DNA of 64,000 bases from assembly GCF_900129645.1 (NCBI RefSeq), contig NZ_FSQZ01000001.1, positions 496,001 through 560,000 of the forward strand, read 5' to 3'. The translations under genes were made by a program, and so were the position numbers. Under the pieces are notes generated by a model. That model made no database searches. It was not told the DNA's origin and worked only from the letters and a program-made list of their open reading frames with translations. Of the stretch, positions 52,659 to 64,000 are shown piece by piece. Each line of letters begins with the position of its first letter. The first letter of the stretch is position 1. Origin of the DNA: Acetomicrobium flavidum. Lineage in GTDB: Bacteria; Synergistota; Synergistia; Synergistales; Acetomicrobiaceae.

Positions 52659-52734
<76 letters not shown>

Positions 52735-52860: not shown

Positions 52861-53802
52861 TTATCCCAGTAGTTTAAGCACTTCGTCCTTGGATTTGGCG
52901 TCAAGCACGGCTTCGGCTGCGGCGTCAAGCTTGGATTCGTCGGTAACGGAGCGGATCATCTTTTCATCAGAAGATGACAGGCCAAATTTGCGGCGCAGTT
53001 GTTTTATAAGCAAATCTTGTTTGCCTTTGATTTCGCCTTCTTGTTTACCTTGTTTTATCAGCTTCTCTGCCAGAGACGGCATAAGCTCTTCACCTCCAAG
53101 TTCTTTTACTATCCGTTGCATGGTGTCTTGGTCTACGTCTAGAGTGTAGAATAAATATAGGATCAGTATTATCCTTTCCTCTTCGGACAAGCTTATTATA
53201 ACAGCTATCCTCGTGATTTCCTCTATGTCATGTAAGGCTACAAGCTTCATTAAAAGCAGGCTTGCCATCAAAAAGGGCGTGTCTTTTGCCTTTTGTTCTA
53301 TCTCGTCGTTGGGAATTTGAGTCAAGTCTACTAATACGTAGTTGAACTCAGGGATGTAAGGTTTTATGGATTCACCTATATTTCGAAATTGCCCTTGAAA
53401 ATGAGTCGTTACGTTCCAGCTTGAAGAGCCGTGATAGATGACTACGGGGATTATAGGTGTAAGTGGTTTATTTTTCTTTTTCTGCTCGTCCCACGTTACG
53501 GTCATATAGCTCAGTATCTGAAGTAAGACTCCGGGGTCAGGGTATGACTTATGCTCGAATACAAAATAAAGCTGTCCTTTAGTATCTGCTATTTTGCATT
53601 CCACGGCTATGTCCATGTAGTACTTGTTGTAGCCCTTGATCTTTTCTGTTGGAATGAGCTTTATTTCCTTTAGGTCTATCTGGCTTGAAATGTCTTTGGG
53701 TAGAAATTCCTTTATGAACTGTCTTACGTTTGCTTCATCTGACATTACCCTTTTAAAGAGCCTGTCGTGGGGGTCTTTGGGCGTAAGGTCGTCTTTTGGC
53801 AC
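52861..53802 (-). CDS. Rpn-family recombination-promoting nuclease/putative transposase
   Basis: Protein of the Rpn (PF04754, former Transposase_31) family with a PD-(D/E)xK nuclease fold; some members promote recombination. The 313 residues start at GTG 53802 (GGAGG eight bases upstream; TTG 53808 is too close). Seen are PHDRLFKRVMSDEANVRQFIKEFLP, MDIAVECKIADTKGQLYFVFEHKSYPDPGVLLQILSY, IPVVIYHGSSSWN, and a C-terminal alpha region of Rpn type (KQGKQEGEIKGKQDLLIKQLRRKFG). The D-x-E-x-K pattern (DIAVECK and FEHKS) is the likely metal site. Located at the border of the AT-rich stretch. Confidence 0.88.
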   Translation of the reverse strand: MPKDDLTPKDPHDRLFKRVMSDEANVRQFIKEFLPKDISSQIDLKEIKLIPTEKIKGYNKYYMDIAVECKIADTKGQLYFVFEHKSYPDPGVLLQILSYMTVTWDEQKKKNKPLTPIIPVVIYHGSSSWNVTTHFQGQFRNIGESIKPYIPEFNYVLVDLTQIPNDEIEQKAKDTPFLMASLLLMKLVALHDIEEITRIAVIISLSEEERIILILYLFYTLDVDQDTMQRIVKELGGEELMPSLAEKLIKQGKQEGEIKGKQDLLIKQLRRKFGLSSSDEKMIRSVTDESKLDAAAEAVLDAKSKDEVLKLLG

Positions 53803-54214
53803 AAGCAAGGCCTCCTTTGCGTTGAAAGTAATTGACGTAGTTTATTGTACATGAAAAAGCATAACCTTAAAACTGTTGGCAGGCCTTTAAAATACCCGGC
53901 AGGCTTTAAGCTATAGGACGAATATTCTATGTATGGACAAGTGTTACTATGTATTAAGAGATATTCTTGCAACATGATTACCATCTGCATAAACCACAAC
54001 ACTGGCGTTAAGGTATTGTTTGGAATAGAGTGCCAGTAGTGTTGGCCTGCCAGATTAAAGTTCAAAATTTAAGATCACTACTCCTTCGAAAAGCAAACAA
54101 ATATAATTTCATATTATTTTTATAATAGAATTATATTATAAACATCATAATAATGAAAGATTCCAAGATACTGTCTACAAAAATATTAGAAACCTCTAAA
54201 GGGAGTATAGAGGC
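53803..54214. other. AT-rich gap upstream of the secreted nuclease-like gene
   Basis: No gene recognised in these 412 bases. It contains a degenerate 67-base repeat (54017-54083) that resembles one at 60177-60244, and a very AT-rich block at 54095-54170 with short AT palindromes. The promoter of the downstream gene probably lies in the latter. Confidence 0.5.
54017..54083 (+). repeat. Degenerate repeat copy A (paired with 60177-60244)
   Basis: Begins TGTTTGGA, has TGTTGGCCTG after about 15 bases and TTCAAAA near the end, finishing in ACTACTCC. The other copy has the same three anchors in the same order and spacing. I think they are ends of a decayed insertion sequence (IS21-type is likely), but the match is partial. 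Confidence 0.45.
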
Positions 54215-55188
54215 ATGAGTGCAGTACATTCATTAAACAGTAAGAGAATGCATAAGAATACTATGATATTAAATTACATTATCCACAAAATAACCTTACT
54301 ATGTTATTGTATACTATTATTTTTACTTCCGAATTTTAATGAATCTTTCGCTTTTCCAGTTGCGACATTTAACATTCAAAATTTCTGCTTAAAAAATGAT
54401 TCGCACTTGAATGAAGAGGCTTATACTATTGACGAGATATATAAACTTGCCAGTATTATGAAGGAATCTAAAGCCCAACTTTTCGCCTTACAAGAAATTA
54501 GAGACATAAGATCACTTGAATGTCTTATTAGTTGCTTCCCGGCTTGGTGGAGGATGGAGTTTAGCGATGCAGGCGGCAAACAGCAACTTGCCTTTATTTG
54601 GAACAAGAATTATTTTCAGAAAAAACCAGATACAACAAAGCAATGGTTTAGTGATGAGATATTTGAGTATGAATATAATGGTATAATAAAAAAACCAAAG
54701 CTTTTTGACAGGCCTCCTTTAGAGATAACGTTTTTCAGTCAAAAGCTAGGCACTCAAATAACTTTTATAAATGTTCATCTTAAAAGTAAAACATTAAGCA
54801 GGTATATGAATGAGACAGCTGGTAATGACTATAATATAACGAAATGGCATGCGCAGGTTAAAGCGTTGAAATACATTTGTAAACCATACAAAACAAAGAA
54901 TATATTTCATCCCCGCAGAAATTTAATTTTCTTAGGGGATTTTAATAGAGATGATCAAGAAGGAGATAAGCAAATTAGAAAACTAGGAATCCAGGTTTAC
55001 AAATTAAGAAATGGTTTTTCATATGATAAAAATAAGCATAATCTAGATTTCTTGGATTATACAACCTGGATGACAAGTTAAAGAATAAAATATGGAATGT
55101 TTATGAAGTAGAATCGGCTATAAAATCTAACGATTACGGGGATGAAATACCTGATCATGATATTATCGTTTTATCATATGTTAATTAA
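54215..55188 (+). pseudogene. Secreted endonuclease/exonuclease/phosphatase-fold protein with a late frameshift
   Basis: DNase I-like (EEP family) protein with signal peptide (hydrophobic stretch about residues 28-48, likely cut after SFA). Recognised blocks: FPVATFNIQNFC (asparagine), LFALQEIRD (catalytic Glu), ITFINVHLKSKT, and NLIFLGDFNRDDQEGD (GDFN). The reading frame then shifts: the main frame stops at 55081, but a frame one base away runs on from about 55069 as DDKLKNKIWNVYEVESAI to PDHDIIVLSYVN, ending at 55188. That includes the DH pair required by EEP enzymes. One inserted or missing base near 55066-55069 explains this. Either a true pseudogene or a sequencing error. Expressed before the next gene by 12 bases. 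Confidence 0.75.
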
Positions 55189-55200
55189 AGGAGTGATATT

Positions 55201-56904
55201 ATGAATAGGAAAACAAAAGTTTATTTGACCTTATTTATTTTAGTGTGTTTAACATTCGGTGATTGTAGAAAGGTTTTTTCAATAAGCGCGTTGTATAAAT
55301 CTTACGATCAATATGAAGTTTTACAATCGATTAATTATGTGGTATATTCTATATCAAAAATAGTATCATATAATGATAGAATCATATTAACAAATGAGTA
55401 TGATAATATTATTAATAATCTCAATTTTGATGTTATTAATGATAAAAAAATAATTACTCTTCTCACAGATTTAATGGACGTATTAACAGAAGAAATTATA
55501 ACAACCAGACAAAAAGAGCGAATAACAAATCGGTACAAAAAACTTATTGAGAGAGCATTATTTGATAGCATTAAAAATAACATAATAAGTGTAAATATCA
55601 ACCCTGCAAACCTTACATCTGCAATAGCAAACACTATTGTGTCAGCTGGATCAATTTACATTAATTATCAAAATTGTACAGAAGACTATAAAGATGTAAT
55701 GAATGACGCTAACGCTGAACTTGAAGATTATCGAATCAAATATCTAAACAATATGCGATCTTCATTATTAGAAATTTCGTGGGAAATACTCAAGAATTAT
55801 GATATTAATGATAAATATCGCCTTACCGAAAAACAAGCACAAGAATTTATTGAGGCTGTAAAGATAAAGACACCCGATTTGAGATACCGTACAATGAAAA
55901 GACTATTGCAAGATAATCCAGCCTTTCAAGAATTTCCTGAGTTCTGGTATCAATATGGTTTAGCTGCTAAATTATCTAATGCAATCAATTCACCTAATGA
56001 TCTTATTAATATATTATATGAGTATGATAGAACATATAAAAATCTTTTTAGACATAACCCAACTTATGCTGCCGTAGCGATGGAACGCATTATGCTTCGT
56101 CCAAAGAATAGCTATATAAATAAAGAAGATTTAGAAATAATACTCAAAAACTCTACAAATGAGGATTGGCAAAACTATCTATTTGCAGGCATTAAATACC
56201 TTGAGCTGGGCGAAATTGATAAAGCAAGAGACTTATTCCAGCGTAACATTGATAATGGGCATGAAGTCTCTCTCAACGCAAGGCTTTTAAGCGACACTTA
56301 CACCAGTACCGATACCTCTTACAAAAACCTACTAGAGAAAATACTTGCAGATAACAGAGTTTCAAATGCAGATAAACTATACATGATTGGCAAAAGTCGC
56401 GATATTTATTATCTTAATAAATTTAAGGATCAAATTAAAGCCATACAAGTTTCAGCTATTAAATCCAGGAATCCATTCAATGACAGACCCTTATATTTAG
56501 TTCAGATTCCTGTAGACTGGTTTTTAGAAGAGGGACCTTTCGTTGTGTCTTTAAATACAGGAGAAAAAGAATATGAGTTAACATGTGAGTCTTTACATGA
56601 TGACCGCATTGCTATTGACCAAGAAACCAAAAGCGTTCAAATAGAATTTGATAGTATTATCTCTCCATCAGATAAACCTAATGAATCGATAAGGCTTTCC
56701 CTTAGACATCCTCTTATTGATTTAGAATTAACATACATTTGTAACAACCCTAAAGATTTTCAAGACCTAAAAAATAACATCAAAAAAGTTGTAAAATATG
56801 TGCCACTAATTAAATCGACATTAGCGACTTATGAACAAACAAAGATTAAATACCTTGATAACGAATACTACTGGCACGATGGTAATTTTGAAATAGTTGA
56901 ATGA
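55201..56904 (+). CDS. Exported 567-residue protein of unknown family
   Basis: I do not recognise a family. It has an N-terminal hydrophobic segment (VYLTLFILVCLTFG) with cysteine 22 after it (not a classic lipobox), then a mainly helical region of about 350 residues. A TPR-like repeat is seen near residue 330 (FAGIKYLELGEIDKARDLFQRNID). The C-terminal part (after residue 420) reads as beta-rich (YLVQIPVDWFLEEGPFVVSLNTGEKEYELTCES, VQIEFDSI). ATG 55201 follows AAAGGAGTG; 12 bases after the nuclease-like gene, so the two are probably an operon. The whole gene is AT-rich unlike the neighbours, which suggests transfer. Not similar to any catalytic domain that I can name. Confidence 0.75.
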   Translation: MNRKTKVYLTLFILVCLTFGDCRKVFSISALYKSYDQYEVLQSINYVVYSISKIVSYNDRIILTNEYDNIINNLNFDVINDKKIITLLTDLMDVLTEEIITTRQKERITNRYKKLIERALFDSIKNNIISVNINPANLTSAIANTIVSAGSIYINYQNCTEDYKDVMNDANAELEDYRIKYLNNMRSSLLEISWEILKNYDINDKYRLTEKQAQEFIEAVKIKTPDLRYRTMKRLLQDNPAFQEFPEFWYQYGLAAKLSNAINSPNDLINILYEYDRTYKNLFRHNPTYAAVAMERIMLRPKNSYINKEDLEIILKNSTNEDWQNYLFAGIKYLELGEIDKARDLFQRNIDNGHEVSLNARLLSDTYTSTDTSYKNLLEKILADNRVSNADKLYMIGKSRDIYYLNKFKDQIKAIQVSAIKSRNPFNDRPLYLVQIPVDWFLEEGPFVVSLNTGEKEYELTCESLHDDRIAIDQETKSVQIEFDSIISPSDKPNESIRLSLRHPLIDLELTYICNNPKDFQDLKNNIKKVVKYVPLIKSTLATYEQTKIKYLDNEYYWHDGNFEIVE

Positions 56905-57125: not shown

Positions 57126-57301
57126 GTCCTGACTTTATCACCTAACCCTTCAAGATCCACATCGTTATGGGATAGTTAAAATAAAAACGTGCAGAATTGT
57201 TCCTACACGTCTAGCGGGAACTTTATATGAGGTTATCTTTGGCTTATGAGCTTAATGTCCTTCAGTGGGATGACGTTTTTTAGGCTTTTTATTCTCATTG
57301 C

Positions 57302-58252
57302 CTACGGTATCTTTTGGCTTAAGAGAGTCCTTTTGACCTTTACGAGGAAGTTTTCTCCCTTTAAGCTCACCTTCGTGAAGTTCGTGGAGCTCAATGCCCC
57401 CCTGATCTGCTTAGGAGAGGCGGGCCCCCCACGTCCTTTAACTTCAACTCGAGCTTTTTGATGTACTTGTTGCCCCCTCTTGTTGCTCGAATCCATTCGG
57501 CAAGGGCTTTCCAGCAGCTCTTCTACCTTCTGCAGCAAACACATCCTGTCGGCTTTGTCCTTTTCTGCCCGCTTTCTTGAGAAGGTAATGATGAGGCGTT
57601 CCTCCAGCCGATGGCTTTGACCAACTTCATCTTTTACGACGTTTACATGGGGCAATACCTTGTAGCGAAGCTCGTCTTCTCTTCCTTCGTTTAAGAGGGC
57701 GTAACCTTCTTCATCCAGGGCAGATTTCCTAACCCGAGCCATCCATGCTTTTGAGCTTGGCTGCCACGACGTAGTCGTAACCCTTATTCCTAATTGGCTT
57801 TAAGCAACGTCTTTCCGTCGAAGGTGTTACCGGGAAAGAGCTCATAACCTACCGGCCTTCCATCGCAATCCGTAATGAGGCCCAATACAACCTGAACTTC
57901 CTTGAACTTCCCATCCTTACTAAAGCCGAAGTCCTTCGGGGAATCTGCAGATGTGCTCTCAAAGTAGAAGGTCGTCACGTCGTAAAACACCACGTTCACC
58001 TGCATGTTGAAAAGGCTTCTTCCTCGCTTAAAGATGGCCTGTTCCAGCGTCTCCTTGTCTTCCGCCACTACGTCCAAGGCCCTGTATAGGTGGTTGTAGC
58101 CGATGTGCGGTAGCTTCAGGTAACGACTCTGGCCCTCGTAGGTGGCAAGCTTGCTTTTGGGTTCAAGCAGATGCTGGATGACCATTAAAAGGCAGGCTAT
58201 GGTACGGTATCTTACCCTCCCGCCTTCGCGATAAGACTCCACAATGCGTATG
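57302..58252 (-). pseudogene. IS1634-family transposase, multiply disrupted
   Basis: Two fragments read leftward. One (57790-58242) has VNVVFYDVTTFYFES, the first catalytic aspartate region, and GRPVGYELFPGNTFDGKTL; then the frame stops. Another (57302-57742) holds RADR-like remnants and PASPKQI. Between them, GYDYVVAAKLKSM lies in yet another frame, and the second catalytic region is deleted. The N-terminus lacks an ATG (TAG where YIRIVES should start) and about 60-80 residues after RTIA are missing. It cannot make active protein. Confidence 0.8.
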
Positions 58253-58340
58253 TACTAGTTTCCCTTGGATTTTACGACCTTTATTACAAGTAGAATACTG
58301 AAAGAATAAAGTTGTCCATACATTTTTCTCAAAAAAGGCT

Positions 58341-58386
58341 TCTGCCTCCTAAGAATCCCTTAGTTATGGGGTTTTTAGGAGGCAGA
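58341..58386. terminator. Imperfect hairpin inside the IS1634-type unit
   Basis: Arms TCTGCCTCCTAAgAAtCCC and GGGgTTTTTAGGAGGCAGA pair in 17 of 19 positions across an 8-base loop. Could be a terminator-like element that protects the IS from outside transcription. Confidence 0.45.
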
Positions 58387-58481
58387 GCAGCTAAAAAGTG
58401 GGGTTGACTGATAAAGTCGGGAATATCACCATATTATACAACTACGAATTAATAGACTGAAAAAAATTAATAAATATAAAC

Positions 58482-59552
58482 TTAACTGCTAACTGCATAT
58501 ATAACTGTCTCACAAAGGTTTTTGCTATGATGCCCTAAATAAAGCTTATAATCAGGCCGAAGTTCTTTGAGAAACAGCGGAATTTCCCATAAATCCTCAC
58601 AGCGATGGTAAATGCACACTTGAAGTCCGGGGCCATATTTAACAATGGTATTCTTTGCCCCACGCAATGCCGCCATCTCACCGCCTTCTATGTCCATCTT
58701 TATCAGATTGGGCACCATTTTGACTTCGTTACAGAAATCGTCTATGGTTGTGATATTGACCAACAGGGAACCCGTTGATGAAATGCAGTTAGAACTGCTG
58801 AGCTGGGATAACTGAATCCATGCATATCCGTTTCTGTCGCTTACTCCTGCAGCTACCGGAATAACATTATTTTCAAGGCCTTCATCGTGAATATTTTTAC
58901 ATAAATCAGCCATGCTATGTGGTGTCGGTTCAAAGGCCACAACTTTACCATTTTGATCTATAAGTTTTGCAAATTTAATTGCTGTATCCCCAGTCCATGC
59001 CCCAACATCAAATAAAACCTTACACCCCGCAAAATCTATTGAGGGGTGGCAATACTGATCGTACTCGGAAACTATTAAACAGATAGGATCTAGTGATTTA
59101 CGATATTCGATAACGGAAAGAAATGTTTTTTTAGACAAATCGTCATCAAGAAGATTATAAACTGTTTTAAGCTCATCTAAATGGCTTGTAAGCATTTTTC
59201 GGTCAAAATAACAAGTTACATTATTAATGTAATCTTTAATACCCATATCTAGGAGTTGACAAGCTATATCTTTTGCCCAATAGCTGGCAATGCATATCAG
59301 CGGATTGGCAAATGTACTATAAAGAGACAATAATCTCGAAGGAGAAATGATAGGTACGTCATCTATGCTTTTATCCCACTTTTCCGGATCGTTATCGACA
59401 AAACAATGAACTCTAAGTTTCATCTCCCTTTCCAAATATGCTTTGACTTTCTTACCGCTGCCGCCTGCTCCAAAAACAATGATCTCTTTAGCGCTGTTAA
59501 GCTTTTCTTCCACATCTAAAAATTCCTCTTCAAGCTTCCTTATGCTTTCCAT
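58482..59552 (-). CDS. FkbM-family methyltransferase
   Basis: S-adenosylmethionine-dependent O-methyltransferase of the FkbM family, likely acting on a surface glycan. The 356 residues have an N-terminal Rossmann-like part (EIIVFGAGGSGKKVKAYLE and CFVDNDPEKWDKS) and a C-terminal FkbM domain with CKVLFDVGAWTGDTAIKFAKLI, VVAFEPTPHSMADLCKNI, NLIKMDIEGGEMAALRGAKNTI (hallmark D-x-E-G). ATG 59552; the AGGAGG lies 20 bases upstream with an in-frame stop in between, so this start is the only one but its site is far. Probably associated with the downstream glycan operon at 60-64 kb. Confidence 0.85.
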   Translation of the reverse strand: MESIRKLEEEFLDVEEKLNSAKEIIVFGAGGSGKKVKAYLEREMKLRVHCFVDNDPEKWDKSIDDVPIISPSRLLSLYSTFANPLICIASYWAKDIACQLLDMGIKDYINNVTCYFDRKMLTSHLDELKTVYNLLDDDLSKKTFLSVIEYRKSLDPICLIVSEYDQYCHPSIDFAGCKVLFDVGAWTGDTAIKFAKLIDQNGKVVAFEPTPHSMADLCKNIHDEGLENNVIPVAAGVSDRNGYAWIQLSQLSSSNCISSTGSLLVNITTIDDFCNEVKMVPNLIKMDIEGGEMAALRGAKNTIVKYGPGLQVCIYHRCEDLWEIPLFLKELRPDYKLYLGHHSKNLCETVIYAVSS

Positions 59553-60257
59553 GATCTCGCTTTAAGCTAACCTCCTAAAATACTAAGTTATATTACTGAC
59601 ATCACAGACTATGCAACCACACAGCTATATATCTTTTCTAGTAAATGCTATTAAAGCATAAGATTTTGCGCTTTTATTATTTATAATGTCAGGTTGTATT
59701 ACTTACATGATTAATTTATATACAAGCCATGATAAATTCCAAAAATACACCCTCTTGATTTATTATTTTAGTTTTACACCTCCCGAAGGAACCGGTCCTG
59801 CCGGTTACCAAGATGACCTTACAGTTTACATACATTACGCCTATCCCCTGCCTGGCGACATGCAGATACAAATTTCGTATACATTATCGGCACCATTGAA
59901 TTTTTTTATAAGTAAAGGTGCCGTGCCTTTGAATTTATAAAATTTTAAGAATGCGATAACAAATGTAAACTTAACGCGTCAACTTTCCAAATTACCACCG
60001 GCATCCGAGTAATCAAGAAACTTTTCTAGTGCTTTTGTAGCTAGGGAACAAAACACAACAAAAACATGTTCGGTCTAACTTGTTGAAATATAATTCAAGA
60101 TTAAAGATCCGACCCCAGAGTATACTTTATAATATAATCGCCATTTGGATGAGTTGGAATATTAGCATAGATACTCTGTTTGGAGCGGGTTGTCGGCGAT
60201 GTTGGCCTGAAAAAGCAAAAATTCAAAACTAAAATTGTGGCTCCAATGCTCTAATAT
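59553..60257. other. AT-rich gap with no clear gene
   Basis: About 700 bases with no recognised gene. A possible small reading frame at 59686-59940 (+), including TPPEGTGPAGYQDDLTVYIHYAYP, has no ribosome site and no family. A hairpin AACCGG-TCCTG-CCGGTT lies near 59789. The degenerate repeat B occupies 60177-60244. Confidence 0.5.
60177..60244 (+). repeat. Degenerate repeat copy B (paired with 54017-54083)
   Basis: Begins TGTTTGGA, has TGTTGGCCTG at the same offset, TTCAAAA and ends in GTGGCTCC. Direct orientation relative to copy A. Possible ends of an insertion sequence bracketing the AT-rich stretch. Confidence 0.45.
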
Positions 60258-61550
60258 TCATTCTGTAATATCCAACACATCCAATAAATCTGCCGACTTC
60301 AGTTGGTCTATTATTGCATATAGTTCCCAGACTGGAACGCCAATTTTATCGCTTATATCGATCAAATCGTTCTTGCCGTCGGCATAGGCTATGAAGTTCA
60401 TCATATTCCTGACTGTCGAAGCAGAATTTTTAGCACTTAGTGTCGGGTACAAGCCACGCCTTCCCAGTTGTGGTTCGCATAAGCATTTTATCTTGTAAAT
60501 ATGATCATTTTCTATGAGAAAAATGCATTCTTTTATTACATCATATGCTCCATACAAACCTTCAGGGCTGACAAGGCTTAAGTTATCCAAAGAAGTATGA
60601 TATTCAGGATACGTCCCATACTTGCTTCGCATAACCGAACATACGGGTAAATCAACCCCAGGGGCATCATATTGTCTCTCATCGCTTCCTCTGTCCAAAA
60701 ACGAATACTTAACGAAATTTGGATGTTTATGTCTAAGCACATTTAAGGCAACCCTATCAACATAGAGATTGCCCATCCTGGTTGCTAAATAGGAATATTG
60801 CCTGTTATCCCCCATACACGTAAGGTTAAAGCCAGCTATTACGTTTTTCTTCATGCGTTCGAGATTTTTGCTCAAATATACTATGGATCCTATGGTTTCC
60901 GGTACATACACGATACGGTAGGTGTACCGCCTATCTGTGCTCATGATCCATTTGGCGAGGAATGTCGCAACTGTCGGACCTGACAGGTTATCATTAGCCA
61001 TCGAGGGATGACATATGTATGTCGAAAGAAAAACCTCCTTCTGGGATTTTCCCGGAACTACCAGTTCGCCATATGTCAGATATCCATCCTTTAACTCACT
61101 GTCAATAAAAACTTTGTAATTGTATCTTTTTAGCTTGACTCGATCGCTGTGAGCTATGCAAAATCCCCATCTTTCCTGGTAGTAAGAAGTGACGTATGGA
61201 ATTGCATCGGGTTGCTCGGGCAGAGAATATAGGTGCTCCTGGAGTTCGGCGTAAGAAACGACCTTATTTACCGGAATCGAATACCCGAGAACGTGCAGAT
61301 TATTTTTCCTAAAGTCGACCACCTTATTTCCGCTTTCGTCCATAACATAAGCATCTTTGATATTCCATTCCCTAGGAACTGTCCAATCAAACGCTTGAGT
61401 TCCGGTCGGAACTTCACGGATTTCGATCGGTATATGTTTTTGTATCGCCCTTAGCGTCTGCCTAACCCCGCCGCCAGTGATAGACCTGCATATCGGAAAC
61501 AAGTCGCTTAAGAATTCATACATCTGTTTGCCAATTAGATTATGCATCAT
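60258..61550 (-). CDS. DUF4910 aminopeptidase-like protein
   Basis: Member of the DUF4910 family, related to zinc peptidases (M28-like core), with a C-terminal winged-helix-type tail; commonly found in surface glycan clusters, function unproven. The 430 residues show MYEFLSDLFPICRSITGGGVRQTLRAI, EVFLSTYICHPSMANDNLSGPTVATFLAKWI (CHPSMANDNLSG as metal site), VPETIGSIVYL, FLDRGSDERQYDAPGVDLPV, and TYPEYHTSLDNLSLVS. ATG 61550 overlaps the upstream acetyltransferase (ATGA). Terminal gene of the operon. Confidence 0.9.
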   Translation of the reverse strand: MMHNLIGKQMYEFLSDLFPICRSITGGGVRQTLRAIQKHIPIEIREVPTGTQAFDWTVPREWNIKDAYVMDESGNKVVDFRKNNLHVLGYSIPVNKVVSYAELQEHLYSLPEQPDAIPYVTSYYQERWGFCIAHSDRVKLKRYNYKVFIDSELKDGYLTYGELVVPGKSQKEVFLSTYICHPSMANDNLSGPTVATFLAKWIMSTDRRYTYRIVYVPETIGSIVYLSKNLERMKKNVIAGFNLTCMGDNRQYSYLATRMGNLYVDRVALNVLRHKHPNFVKYSFLDRGSDERQYDAPGVDLPVCSVMRSKYGTYPEYHTSLDNLSLVSPEGLYGAYDVIKECIFLIENDHIYKIKCLCEPQLGRRGLYPTLSAKNSASTVRNMMNFIAYADGKNDLIDISDKIGVPVWELYAIIDQLKSADLLDVLDITE

Positions 61551-62371
61551 ATCATTACCTTATCTTTCAAGAAAAAGAAGATATCCTTATCCAACAATTC
61601 ATAACCTACATCGAATATATCATTTGATCTTGCTACCTTTACGGCGCTGTATCCCAACTTTACTTCCTTTAATGCACCGCACTCCAATGCATACCTTTCA
61701 AACCGGGATGCATCGGTTACTACGTTTTTATCCAAATACCTAACGTAATACGTGTAAGTATCTTCGTACTCTTTGTCTCCGACTTTTATCCTTCCGGTGA
61801 ACGATTTCATATACCTGTAGGGAACCACATGTTTTTGCTCAATGTGATGTAAAAAAGTCATGACATGAAAATCTACCCCAAAAAAGACCAGCTTACCCTT
61901 TTTCTTTCGCAACTTCCCAAAGATGGAGTCATCATCGAAAGAGTCCTTGCTTAACCCTTCCGTAAAGTAGGCTTTCTCTTTGCCCCACACTGCTGCCGAA
62001 AATATCGGATGTATGGTCCTTGTGACACCGCTTTGCTTCCTAAAAAACTCCGTAAGTACCCCTACTGTAGAAGGTGAGGTTTCAGGACAATAAGTTTCGC
62101 CCTTGGTAAAGCTGTAGGTGAAGGTAGGCATGATTATCGTTCCTTCTGAGCCAACCGCTTCTTTAAATGCATTCAATATCATGCCCAGGAATTTGTCCCT
62201 ATCCCTTATATTTCCCAGCTTACCAAATACAGAGACATCGGAATGAACAAAGATGATATCGCCTTTTTCGATATTGGCACTGCACAAGGCATCGGCAATA
62301 TCAGCGTAGTATATTTTTTCACTATCATCACAAATATATAAATAATCTTTTCCTCTTTCGTCACAATCCAT
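61547..62371 (-). CDS. AAC(3)-like acetyltransferase
   Basis: Acetyl-CoA dependent N-acetyltransferase with the fold of aminoglycoside 3-N-acetyltransferases. The 274-residue protein has the family start VHSDVSVFGKLGN, TIIMPTFTYSFTKGE, GVLTEFFRKQSGVTRTIHPIFSAAVWGKEK, FFGVDFHVMTFLHHIEQKHVVPYRYMKSF. Located between an FkbH-type gene and DUF4910, it more likely acetylates an amino sugar on a surface glycan than an antibiotic. ATG 62371 (TTG 62374 is also possible; GGGAG 12-15 bases upstream). Cotranslated with DUF4910. Confidence 0.88.
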   Translation of the reverse strand: MDCDERGKDYLYICDDSEKIYYADIADALCSANIEKGDIIFVHSDVSVFGKLGNIRDRDKFLGMILNAFKEAVGSEGTIIMPTFTYSFTKGETYCPETSPSTVGVLTEFFRKQSGVTRTIHPIFSAAVWGKEKAYFTEGLSKDSFDDDSIFGKLRKKKGKLVFFGVDFHVMTFLHHIEQKHVVPYRYMKSFTGRIKVGDKEYEDTYTYYVRYLDKNVVTDASRFERYALECGALKEVKLGYSAVKVARSNDIFDVGYELLDKDIFFFLKDKVMI

Positions 62372-62425
62372 CAATATAATATAATCTCCCGTTCATAAAA
62401 ATCCTAAATTTTGAAGGAACCCTGC

Positions 62426-64000
62426 TTATATCTCTATATTTATCTTAAAATAGTCGGGACAAGATATCCCGGCCTCTTTAACGTTAAGACAATACCTGCC
62501 GTCTATCTCGGTGAAACCCAAATTTCTGTAAAAGTCCTTCGCAGGCATGTTCTTTTTGGTGGGGATGTACTCACCCCAAACGGTTTCTATTCCGCTTTTT
62601 AACGCCTGTTCGCAAACGAATGACATCATGGCATCTTCCACCTTCCTGTTCATCACCCTACAGCTGAGCAGGAAGGTATCGATAAACCATTCCCTGTCAT
62701 TTAATTCCTCTATTATTACAAGGCCTACTATGCCGTAATCGCCAAACTTGTCCTTTACGTCAAAGGCATATATGCGATGTCTGCCGTCTTTTGCCATGGA
62801 CCTTACGTCCTCTTCCGTGTATCTTCTGGTCGTAAGGTTGAACTGGTTGGTCTTTTGCGTAAGCTGGGATATCCTGGGGATGTAAAAGTCGCTCGCTCCC
62901 TTTACGGTAATTACCATGTCAAGGTTTCTGTAAAAATCTTCCAGGCTTTCAAATTGGCTTTGAAGGCTTGCCCTCTTGATCTGGGCTCTGTACATGTTGG
63001 TCCTGTTCAAGTCTTCTTCCGTTATGTCCAGCTTTTCAAAGCAGTCGATGCCTCTTGCGAAATCGACAAACAGGGTTGGATCGTCGGGCATTAAATATGT
63101 CATTACCATTGGAAGCCTTTCTTTGACGAGCTCGCACTCTACGGGATTGTCGTCTATGAAGACCATGCTGTCGAGACCTATGTTAAGCTCGCGCGAGATC
63201 TCCAGGATGTTTGTTGCCTTATCGTTCCAGTTTATCTTGATGCAGGCAAAGTTTTCTTCCCTTAAGACCATGTCGGGGTGACCGTTTATGACCTCCATGG
63301 CATCGTCGTAGTTGTTCTTGCTGTTTACGGCAAGAATTACGCCCCTCTGGGTTAGCTTTAAAAGCTCCCTTTGGAAGTCCTTGTAACATTTGCCGGGGTA
63401 GCTTTCTCCAAGCTTTATGCCGTTAAATCCGTCCTCGCCCACGATACCGCCCCACAGGGTGTTGTCAAGGTCGAGGACGATGCATTTTTTTGCCATTCCG
63501 TAGATCGCCCTTATTATCTTTGCATATTCTTCAGCCAAACCCAGGTAGTAGTTGCTGTTATATGGATTTTTTGCCACATACCACATCCTTCGATCAAGTA
63601 AGTTGTCCAGGCCCTTTTTGGTTACCATGTAATCTACGTCGTTTATATATACCCCGGAGTAAATTTCCTTCAACTCAAGGAGTTTAAGGTTGATGTCTCT
63701 TACAAAGTTAAGGAGGCTTGATTTGGTCTGGTAGTCGTATATCCCAGCACCCGGAAATTCAGGCATGGCAAAGTTGTTTATGATGATGTTAGAAGCCGTT
63801 TTTTGCTTTATGGATTTAACAATTGATTCAATAGTATTAAGTACCTCAGACTCAATAAAGCTCAGCACATCCCTTTCAAGGATGGAGCTTTCAAAAAGCT
63901 TCGGCGCCATGTCCTCAAGCCTTAAGGCAATTATCACTATGTCCGGCCTGGAAGCGTAAAGCTCACTTGTATCGTTTAAGACATACTGAAGGTATTGATT
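62426..64000 (-). CDS. FkbH-like HAD-IIIC protein, N-terminus beyond the window edge
   Basis: HAD-superfamily protein of the FkbH type, which loads glyceryl- or similar groups on a carrier protein in polyketide and surface-polymer pathways. The frame stays open to base 64000, so the visible 524 residues lack the true start. It has KKCIVLDLDNTLWGGIVGEDGFNGIKLG (HAD motif I), AVNSKNNYDDAMEVI, MVFIDDNPVECELVKERLPMV (motif III), and a C-terminal GNAT-like domain with LSCRVMNRKVEDAMM and GEYIPTKKNMPAKDFYRNLGF. First visible gene of the leftward glycan operon. Confidence 0.9.
   Translation of the reverse strand, partial: NQYLQYVLNDTSELYASRPDIVIIALRLEDMAPKLFESSILERDVLSFIESEVLNTIESIVKSIKQKTASNIIINNFAMPEFPGAGIYDYQTKSSLLNFVRDINLKLLELKEIYSGVYINDVDYMVTKKGLDNLLDRRMWYVAKNPYNSNYYLGLAEEYAKIIRAIYGMAKKCIVLDLDNTLWGGIVGEDGFNGIKLGESYPGKCYKDFQRELLKLTQRGVILAVNSKNNYDDAMEVINGHPDMVLREENFACIKINWNDKATNILEISRELNIGLDSMVFIDDNPVECELVKERLPMVMTYLMPDDPTLFVDFARGIDCFEKLDITEEDLNRTNMYRAQIKRASLQSQFESLEDFYRNLDMVITVKGASDFYIPRISQLTQKTNQFNLTTRRYTEEDVRSMAKDGRHRIYAFDVKDKFGDYGIVGLVIIEELNDREWFIDTFLLSCRVMNRKVEDAMMSFVCEQALKSGIETVWGEYIPTKKNMPAKDFYRNLGFTEIDGRYCLNVKEAGISCPDYFKINIEI

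What the first reader, a model, noticed from the sequence alone, without database searches (positions are those of the whole stretch)
54215..56904. Two-gene AT-rich cassette: secreted DNase I-fold protein plus large exported unknown protein
Seen: a signal-peptide EEP-family gene is followed after 12 bases by a 567-residue exported protein, both visibly AT-rich against GC-rich neighbours, with insertion-sequence remnants to the right and a degenerate repeat on each side of the wider stretch. Known: EEP-fold proteins act on nucleic acids or phosphoesters. Inference: an extracellular nuclease working with a helical/TPR-like partner, transferred recently.
Basis: partly seen in the sequence, partly recalled or inferred. 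Interest (0 to 1): 0.6.

Follow-up and report, generated by a model that had tools for sequence, protein, structure and literature searches.

The report
DNase-fold enzyme with unnamed helical partner
A recently acquired stretch of a bacterial genome carries a damaged gene for a secreted DNase-type enzyme beside an exported helical protein of an unnamed family; in other bacteria of several phyla, relatives of these two genes sit together almost without exception, which points to an undescribed two-gene nuclease system.

Summary
The two AT-rich genes are real, but the enzyme gene (54215-55081) is frame-broken: its last active-site motif (PDHD) lies in another frame ending at 55188, and the '12 bases' spacing holds only for that reading. 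It is a DNase I-fold (EEP) protein, nearest to secreted EEPs of the same order. The partner (55201-56904) is an exported helical/TPR-like protein with a C-terminal beta domain; it matches no Pfam, NCBIfam, PADLOC or PDB entry. The pair lies in an 11.1-kb insertion absent from a sister species. In 188 genomes of the phylum the two families are adjacent only here. But searching elsewhere with the partner family alone found a cytoplasmic branch (Bacillota, Bacteroidota, Spirochaetota, one Synergistota) with an EEP gene upstream in 22 of 26 testable loci; in 344 Lachnospirales genomes all 7 with this EEP also have the partner, adjacent. Trees put the window's two proteins outside that branch, so this pairing arose separately. 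I read the family as an undescribed two-component nuclease module in which the helical protein controls or positions the nuclease, possibly for defence, and the window copy as an envelope-targeted, probably decaying version. The window adjacency alone could be chance.

The parts
54215..55081 (+). EEP/DNase I-fold ORF, 288 aa, N-terminal export signal; catalytic N53, E94, H188, D242, N244, D278 present; C-terminal DH motif missing from this frame
55042..55188 (+). C-terminal part of the EEP in the -1 frame, with the last active-site motif (PDHD), ending in TAA 12 nt before the partner start
   Evidence: alignment to intact relatives
55189..55200 (+). 12-nt spacer with a Shine-Dalgarno-like AGGAG between the shifted-frame stop and the partner start
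   Evidence: sequence
55201..56904 (+). Exported partner, 567 aa: signal peptide, helical/TPR-like residues 37-413, beta domain 416-565; no Pfam, NCBIfam, PADLOC or PDB family
57127..58422 (-). IS1634-family remnant: imperfect 22-nt inverted repeats around two transposase fragments (57302-57742, 57790-58242); no other copy in the genome
53827..64000 (.). Insertion relative to sister genome G014; continues to about 64927 in window-extended coordinates, beyond the window end; holds the pair, the IS remnant and glycan-modification genes
52861..53808 (-). Rpn-family recombination-promoting nuclease; conserved left flank, also in the sister species
52660..52734 (-). tRNA-Ala(GGC), part of the conserved left flank

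Best explanation
The pair is an envelope-targeted member, probably decaying, of an undescribed two-component nuclease arrangement: a DNase I-fold (EEP) phosphodiesterase plus a large helical/TPR-like partner that scaffolds, senses for, or restrains it. Shown: the partner family is unnamed in the libraries searched; in its cytoplasmic branch it is an almost obligate neighbour of one EEP subfamily in three phyla plus one Synergistota genome; the partner's C-terminal tails are modular (beta domain, Sel1, WD40, zinc ribbon); the window pair lies in a recent insertion and its EEP is frame-broken. Inferred: the two proteins bind each other, the EEP cuts DNA, the partner's variable tail senses or places the complex, and the cytoplasmic form serves genome defence or a stress response (WYL regulators beside several copies). 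In the window both proteins carry export signals, so an intact copy would act on DNA in the periplasm or outside the cell.
For: Partner-only search found EEPs upstream: 22 of 26 testable cytoplasmic-partner loci, mostly -3 to +37 nt apart. Independent sample: 7 of 8 further testable loci, one of them in a contig of the viral collection. Reciprocal test: 7 of 344 Lachnospirales genomes hold this EEP; all 7 hold the partner, adjacent; only 1 of 8 partner genomes lacks it. Profile of the paired EEPs hits DNase gamma/DNase I (E 1.7e-8); catalytic residues invariant. Partner model: helical plus beta domain, local TPR likeness to MamA. Window pair independent of that branch on both trees. Within Synergistota EEP and partner co-occur by genus more than expected (5 of 7 EEP genera; P about 0.002, not corrected for phylogeny). 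WYL regulator in 6 of 112 neighbours; none among the 25 most frequent families of 113 neighbours of exported partners, a comparison across different phyla.
Against: The secreted pair is adjacent only here among 188 Synergistota genomes and not at Desulfobacterota loci. In relatives the exported partner more often neighbours another protein, c3, so it does not need an EEP. The window EEP lacks its last catalytic motif in frame. No interaction or activity was tested. Defence is weakly supported: neither protein hits PADLOC and neighbours are not clearly a defence island.
Confidence: 0.45

Rival explanations
1. The window adjacency is chance: two unrelated exported genes brought together in an acquired variable region. 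The exported partner is an envelope scaffold working with other proteins such as c3, and the EEP is a stand-alone secreted nuclease that is now broken.
For: No other adjacent secreted pair in 188 Synergistota genomes; where both occur they are 13 kb to over 1 Mb apart or on different contigs. c3 is the recurrent neighbour of exported partners. The region is a variable insertion.
Against: The same two families, in the same order and orientation, form an almost obligate pair elsewhere; spacing with a ribosome-binding site looks like an operon in the shifted reading; genus-level co-occurrence.
Confidence: 0.3
2. The secreted EEP is an ordinary extracellular DNase (ExeM/NucH-like, nutrient or biofilm DNA) and the partner is its surface anchor or chaperone, with no sensing or defence role.
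For: Best curated match of window and relatives is ExeM/NucH; both proteins have export signals; the paired cytoplasmic EEP resembles MnuA membrane nuclease.
Against: Scores far below the ExeM/NucH and MnuA cut-offs (22-33 of 300; 42 of 185); the recurrent pair has no signal peptide.
Confidence: 0.15
3. The EEP is not a nuclease but another EEP phosphoesterase (phospholipase or inositol/nucleotide phosphatase type), with the partner giving substrate access.
For: The EEP fold covers such enzymes; the window protein scores below the Pfam threshold.
Against: Nearest solved relatives of the paired EEPs are DNase I and DNase gamma; nearest curated families of both branches are nucleases.
Confidence: 0.1

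Closest known systems
Endonuclease/exonuclease/phosphatase superfamily (PF03372), DNase I-like
   Same: Fold, motif order and catalytic residues in relatives; a paired EEP scores above the Pfam threshold
   Different: Window ORF is below threshold and lacks the final DH motif in frame; association with a helical partner gene was not found described
ExeM/NucH extracellular endonucleases (NF033681)
   Same: Secreted EEP; best curated match of the window protein and of a relative
   Different: Score 22-33 against cut-off 300; match covers only part of the 546-position model
MnuA-family membrane nucleases (NF045851)
   Same: Best curated match of a paired cytoplasmic EEP (E 9.2e-11)
   Different: 42 bits against cut-off 185; no N-terminal signal or anchor seen in the paired EEPs
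TPR proteins such as MamA
   Same: Local Foldseek alignment (prob 1.0 over about 180 columns)
   Different: E 0.015, 15% identity; whole partner (N-terminal bundle plus beta domain) unmatched; no Pfam TPR hit in the window protein
Nuclease-plus-regulator defence modules (general kind)
   Same: Two-gene operon, patchy distribution, sometimes a WYL regulator nearby
   Different: No PADLOC hit for either protein; defence never tested

Membership tests
EEP superfamily (PF03372) | Profile score at or above the gathering threshold | tested here: not met
   Window ORF 16 bits against 24.5; 11 of 12 aligned proteins match at E <= 0.01, the window ORF not; a paired EEP at 28.1 bits passes
EEP superfamily (PF03372) | Complete catalytic set (N, E, H, D/N, D, final DH) | tested here: not met
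   All but the final DH present in the ORF; the DH lies in another frame. Met in relatives and in all paired EEPs
ExeM/NucH extracellular endonuclease | NCBIfam cut-off score | tested here: not met
   22.2 bits against 300
MnuA membrane nuclease (for the paired EEPs) | NCBIfam cut-off and membrane anchor | tested here: not met
   42.3 bits against 185; no N-terminal hydrophobic signal in 21 of 22
TPR protein (for the partner) | TPR repeats by profile or fold | tested here: inconclusive
   No Pfam TPR in the window protein; weak TPR_2 in one relative; local fold match to MamA, E 0.015
Known anti-phage defence system | Match to a catalogued defence protein | tested here: not met
   No PADLOC hit for either protein or their paired relatives
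Anti-phage defence (functional) | Protects cells from phage | not testable with these tools
   Needs a plaque assay
Polymorphic toxin/immunity pair | Shared trafficking domains with swapped toxin C-termini and a specific immunity gene | not tested
   Partner tails vary but no toxin domain was searched for; the EEP is a separate gene

The most novel reading that the evidence does not exclude
EEP + helical partner is a new, mobile two-component nuclease immunity system found in several phyla, whose partner domain carries swappable sensing tails, and which has been moved to the cell envelope at least once (this window) to destroy DNA outside the cytoplasm.
Probability: 0.15. Interest if true: 0.78.

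Novelty: new variant of a known kind. Interest (0 to 1): 0.52.

Why it matters
If right, it names an undescribed protein family found in more than five phyla, absent from the Pfam, NCBIfam and PADLOC copies searched, and a near-obligate nuclease operon that can be tested at once in a laboratory strain. It would also give a concrete case of one nuclease-partner arrangement occurring both in the cytoplasm and, separately, in an exported form.

Tried and rejected
Partner as known housekeeping protein: no Pfam, NCBIfam or PDB match. Phage or plasmid origin: no match in phage or plasmid records and one contig in IMG/VR. tRNA-Ala as integration site: the insertion lies on the 5' side of the tRNA, 1.1 kb away, and the tRNA is shared with the sister. 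Idea that c3 is a zinc phospholipase/P1 nuclease, so that the partner always sits by a phosphodiesterase: the confident c3 model matches no such fold, dropped. Defence-island context: WYL enriched in a cross-phylum comparison, but known systems also appear near controls, so defence is kept as a weak inference only. A programmed frameshift rather than a break: intact relatives read the motif in one frame and I saw no slippery heptamer by eye; not proven. The first genome-contig scan with the single protein found nothing.

Full report
WHAT IS IN THE WINDOW. Two co-directional, AT-rich ORFs lie at 54215-55081 (288 aa) and 55201-56904 (567 aa). Their GC is 31% and 30.5% (GC3 0.30 and 0.25) against 54% for window 1-50000. 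The first is an EEP (DNase I-fold) protein by weak Pfam and NCBIfam matches; 11 of the 12 aligned proteins match PF03372, the window ORF itself being the one below that limit. It is frame-broken: aligned with intact relatives it stops near residue 283, and the missing C-terminal motif (PDHD) is read in the -1 frame, open from 55042 to the stop at 55186-55188. The '12 bases' to the partner hold only for this reading. An assembly indel cannot be excluded.

THE PARTNER. No Pfam, NCBIfam, PADLOC or PDB family matches it. The AlphaFold model (mean pLDDT 82.7, pTM 0.79) is helical from 37 to 413 and then beta (416-565). Foldseek finds no PDB match at E <= 1e-3; the best are local TPR matches to MamA. 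The conserved part of the family is the N-terminal 340 or so residues; the tails vary: beta domain, Sel1 repeats, WD40, zinc ribbon.

GENOMIC SETTING. The pair is single-copy in its 2.02-Mb genome, and neither protein nor the 3.3-kb DNA has a full match in five other species of the genus. In the sister genome G014, the flank up to 53826 (MscS-like channel, AdoMet decarboxylase, tRNA-Ala, Rpn nuclease) continues after about 0.54 kb of unrelated DNA into the sequence that follows 64927 here (93% identical), so 53827-64927 is an 11.1-kb insertion in this genome, or a replaced segment. It also holds an IS1634-family remnant (57127-58422) and genes for a FkbM methyltransferase, a DUF4910 protein and an AAC(3)-like acetyltransferase. 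It abuts a NeuB-type (sialic/pseudaminic-acid-like) sugar cluster and flagellin. No meaningful flanking repeat was found.

DOES THE PAIR RECUR? Within the phylum, not as an adjacent pair: 69 of 188 genomes have the partner family, 21 have the EEP, 19 have both, but outside the window the genes are 13 kb to more than 1 Mb apart or on different contigs. Genus-level co-occurrence is above expectation (5 of 7 EEP genera among 12 partner genera of 63; P about 0.002), but this is not corrected for phylogeny.

Outside, yes, at family level. A scan with the partner alignment alone found 79 loci in Desulfobacterota, Bacillota, Spirochaetota, Bacteroidota, Hydrogenedentota, Omnitrophota, Synergistota and others. 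One branch of 27 loci mostly lacks signal peptides by a simple hydropathy measure. In 22 of its 26 testable loci an EEP gene of one subfamily is upstream, mostly -3 to +37 nt away. In a separate sample of 344 Lachnospirales genomes, 8 have the partner and 7 have this EEP subfamily; all 7 are partner genomes and the genes are adjacent. This is the strongest result here. These EEPs keep all catalytic residues and their profile hits DNase gamma and DNase I (E 1.7e-8). Searching ten genomes behind partner loci showed a single EEP of this subfamily in five of the six that have it.

ARE THE TWO PAIRINGS THE SAME EVENT? No. On a partner tree of 90 sequences the cytoplasmic branch is one group (SH-aLRT 100) and the window protein is sister to genus g8 of its own order (quick tree, long branch for the window protein). 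On the EEP tree the window protein groups with secreted EEPs of its order, apart from the paired subfamily (100/100; long branches there too). So the window adjacency most likely arose separately. That can be read as convergent support for a functional link, or as chance; one case cannot decide.

OTHER NEIGHBOURS. Exported partners often neighbour c3, a signal-peptide protein of about 270 aa with conserved His/Asp residues: upstream in Synergistota, downstream in Hydrogenedentota and Omnitrophota. Its model (pLDDT 89.8) matches no PDB fold. WYL-domain regulators are in 6 of 112 neighbours of EEP+partner loci and not among the listed families of 113 neighbours of exported partners, but the two sets come from different phyla and each table shows only its 25 commonest families; DUF697 proteins are in 4. 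Known defence systems occur near both sets, so a defence-island claim is not made.

MECHANISM. Shown: fold class of the enzyme, its motif set in relatives, near-obligate linkage of the cytoplasmic pair, modular partner tails, recent gain and damage of the window copy. Inferred: physical complex, DNA as substrate, control of the nuclease by the partner, defence or stress role. Most likely the partner gates or positions a DNase; in the window both parts carry export signals and the enzyme is probably inactive.

LITERATURE. Seven full-text searches were run, of which searches were aimed at such a pair; none returned a paper that by title or abstract describes it. I read no paper in full. ExeM is a characterised extracellular nuclease (PMC6085458, title and start of abstract only); the window protein scores far below that family's cut-off.

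VERDICT.

Noticed in passing
L116:5094-5912, L110:4652-5425, L083:2465-3502, L113:8076-8888: c3, an unnamed exported all-helical protein with invariant His/Asp/Arg residues, next to exported partner genes in Synergistota, Hydrogenedentota and Omnitrophota
   Followed up: partly
L061, L062, L063 (genus g8): The closest partner homologues (about 40% identity) lie directly downstream of an apparent RND-efflux operon; an RND-sized gene also lies near the partner in L058
   Followed up: no
Synergistota genus g16, e.g. G048, G060, G070, G083, G086: Partner family expanded to several copies per genome, some fragmented or with internal stops
   Followed up: no
window 58482-64000 and L181:1-10191: Variable glycan-modification genes next to a NeuB-type sugar cluster and flagellin, suggesting flagellin glycosylation variation between sister species
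   Followed up: partly
L132, L140, L141, L147, L151, L153, L159: WYL-type regulators beside or near the EEP+partner operon; some loci also carry a DUF697 protein
   Followed up: partly
L145:3-4855: Type I restriction genes (MTase and REase) directly upstream of an EEP+partner operon
   Followed up: no
L147:5863-8352: Cytoplasmic partner with a C-terminal region that reads like a right-handed beta-helix instead of the usual tail
   Followed up: no
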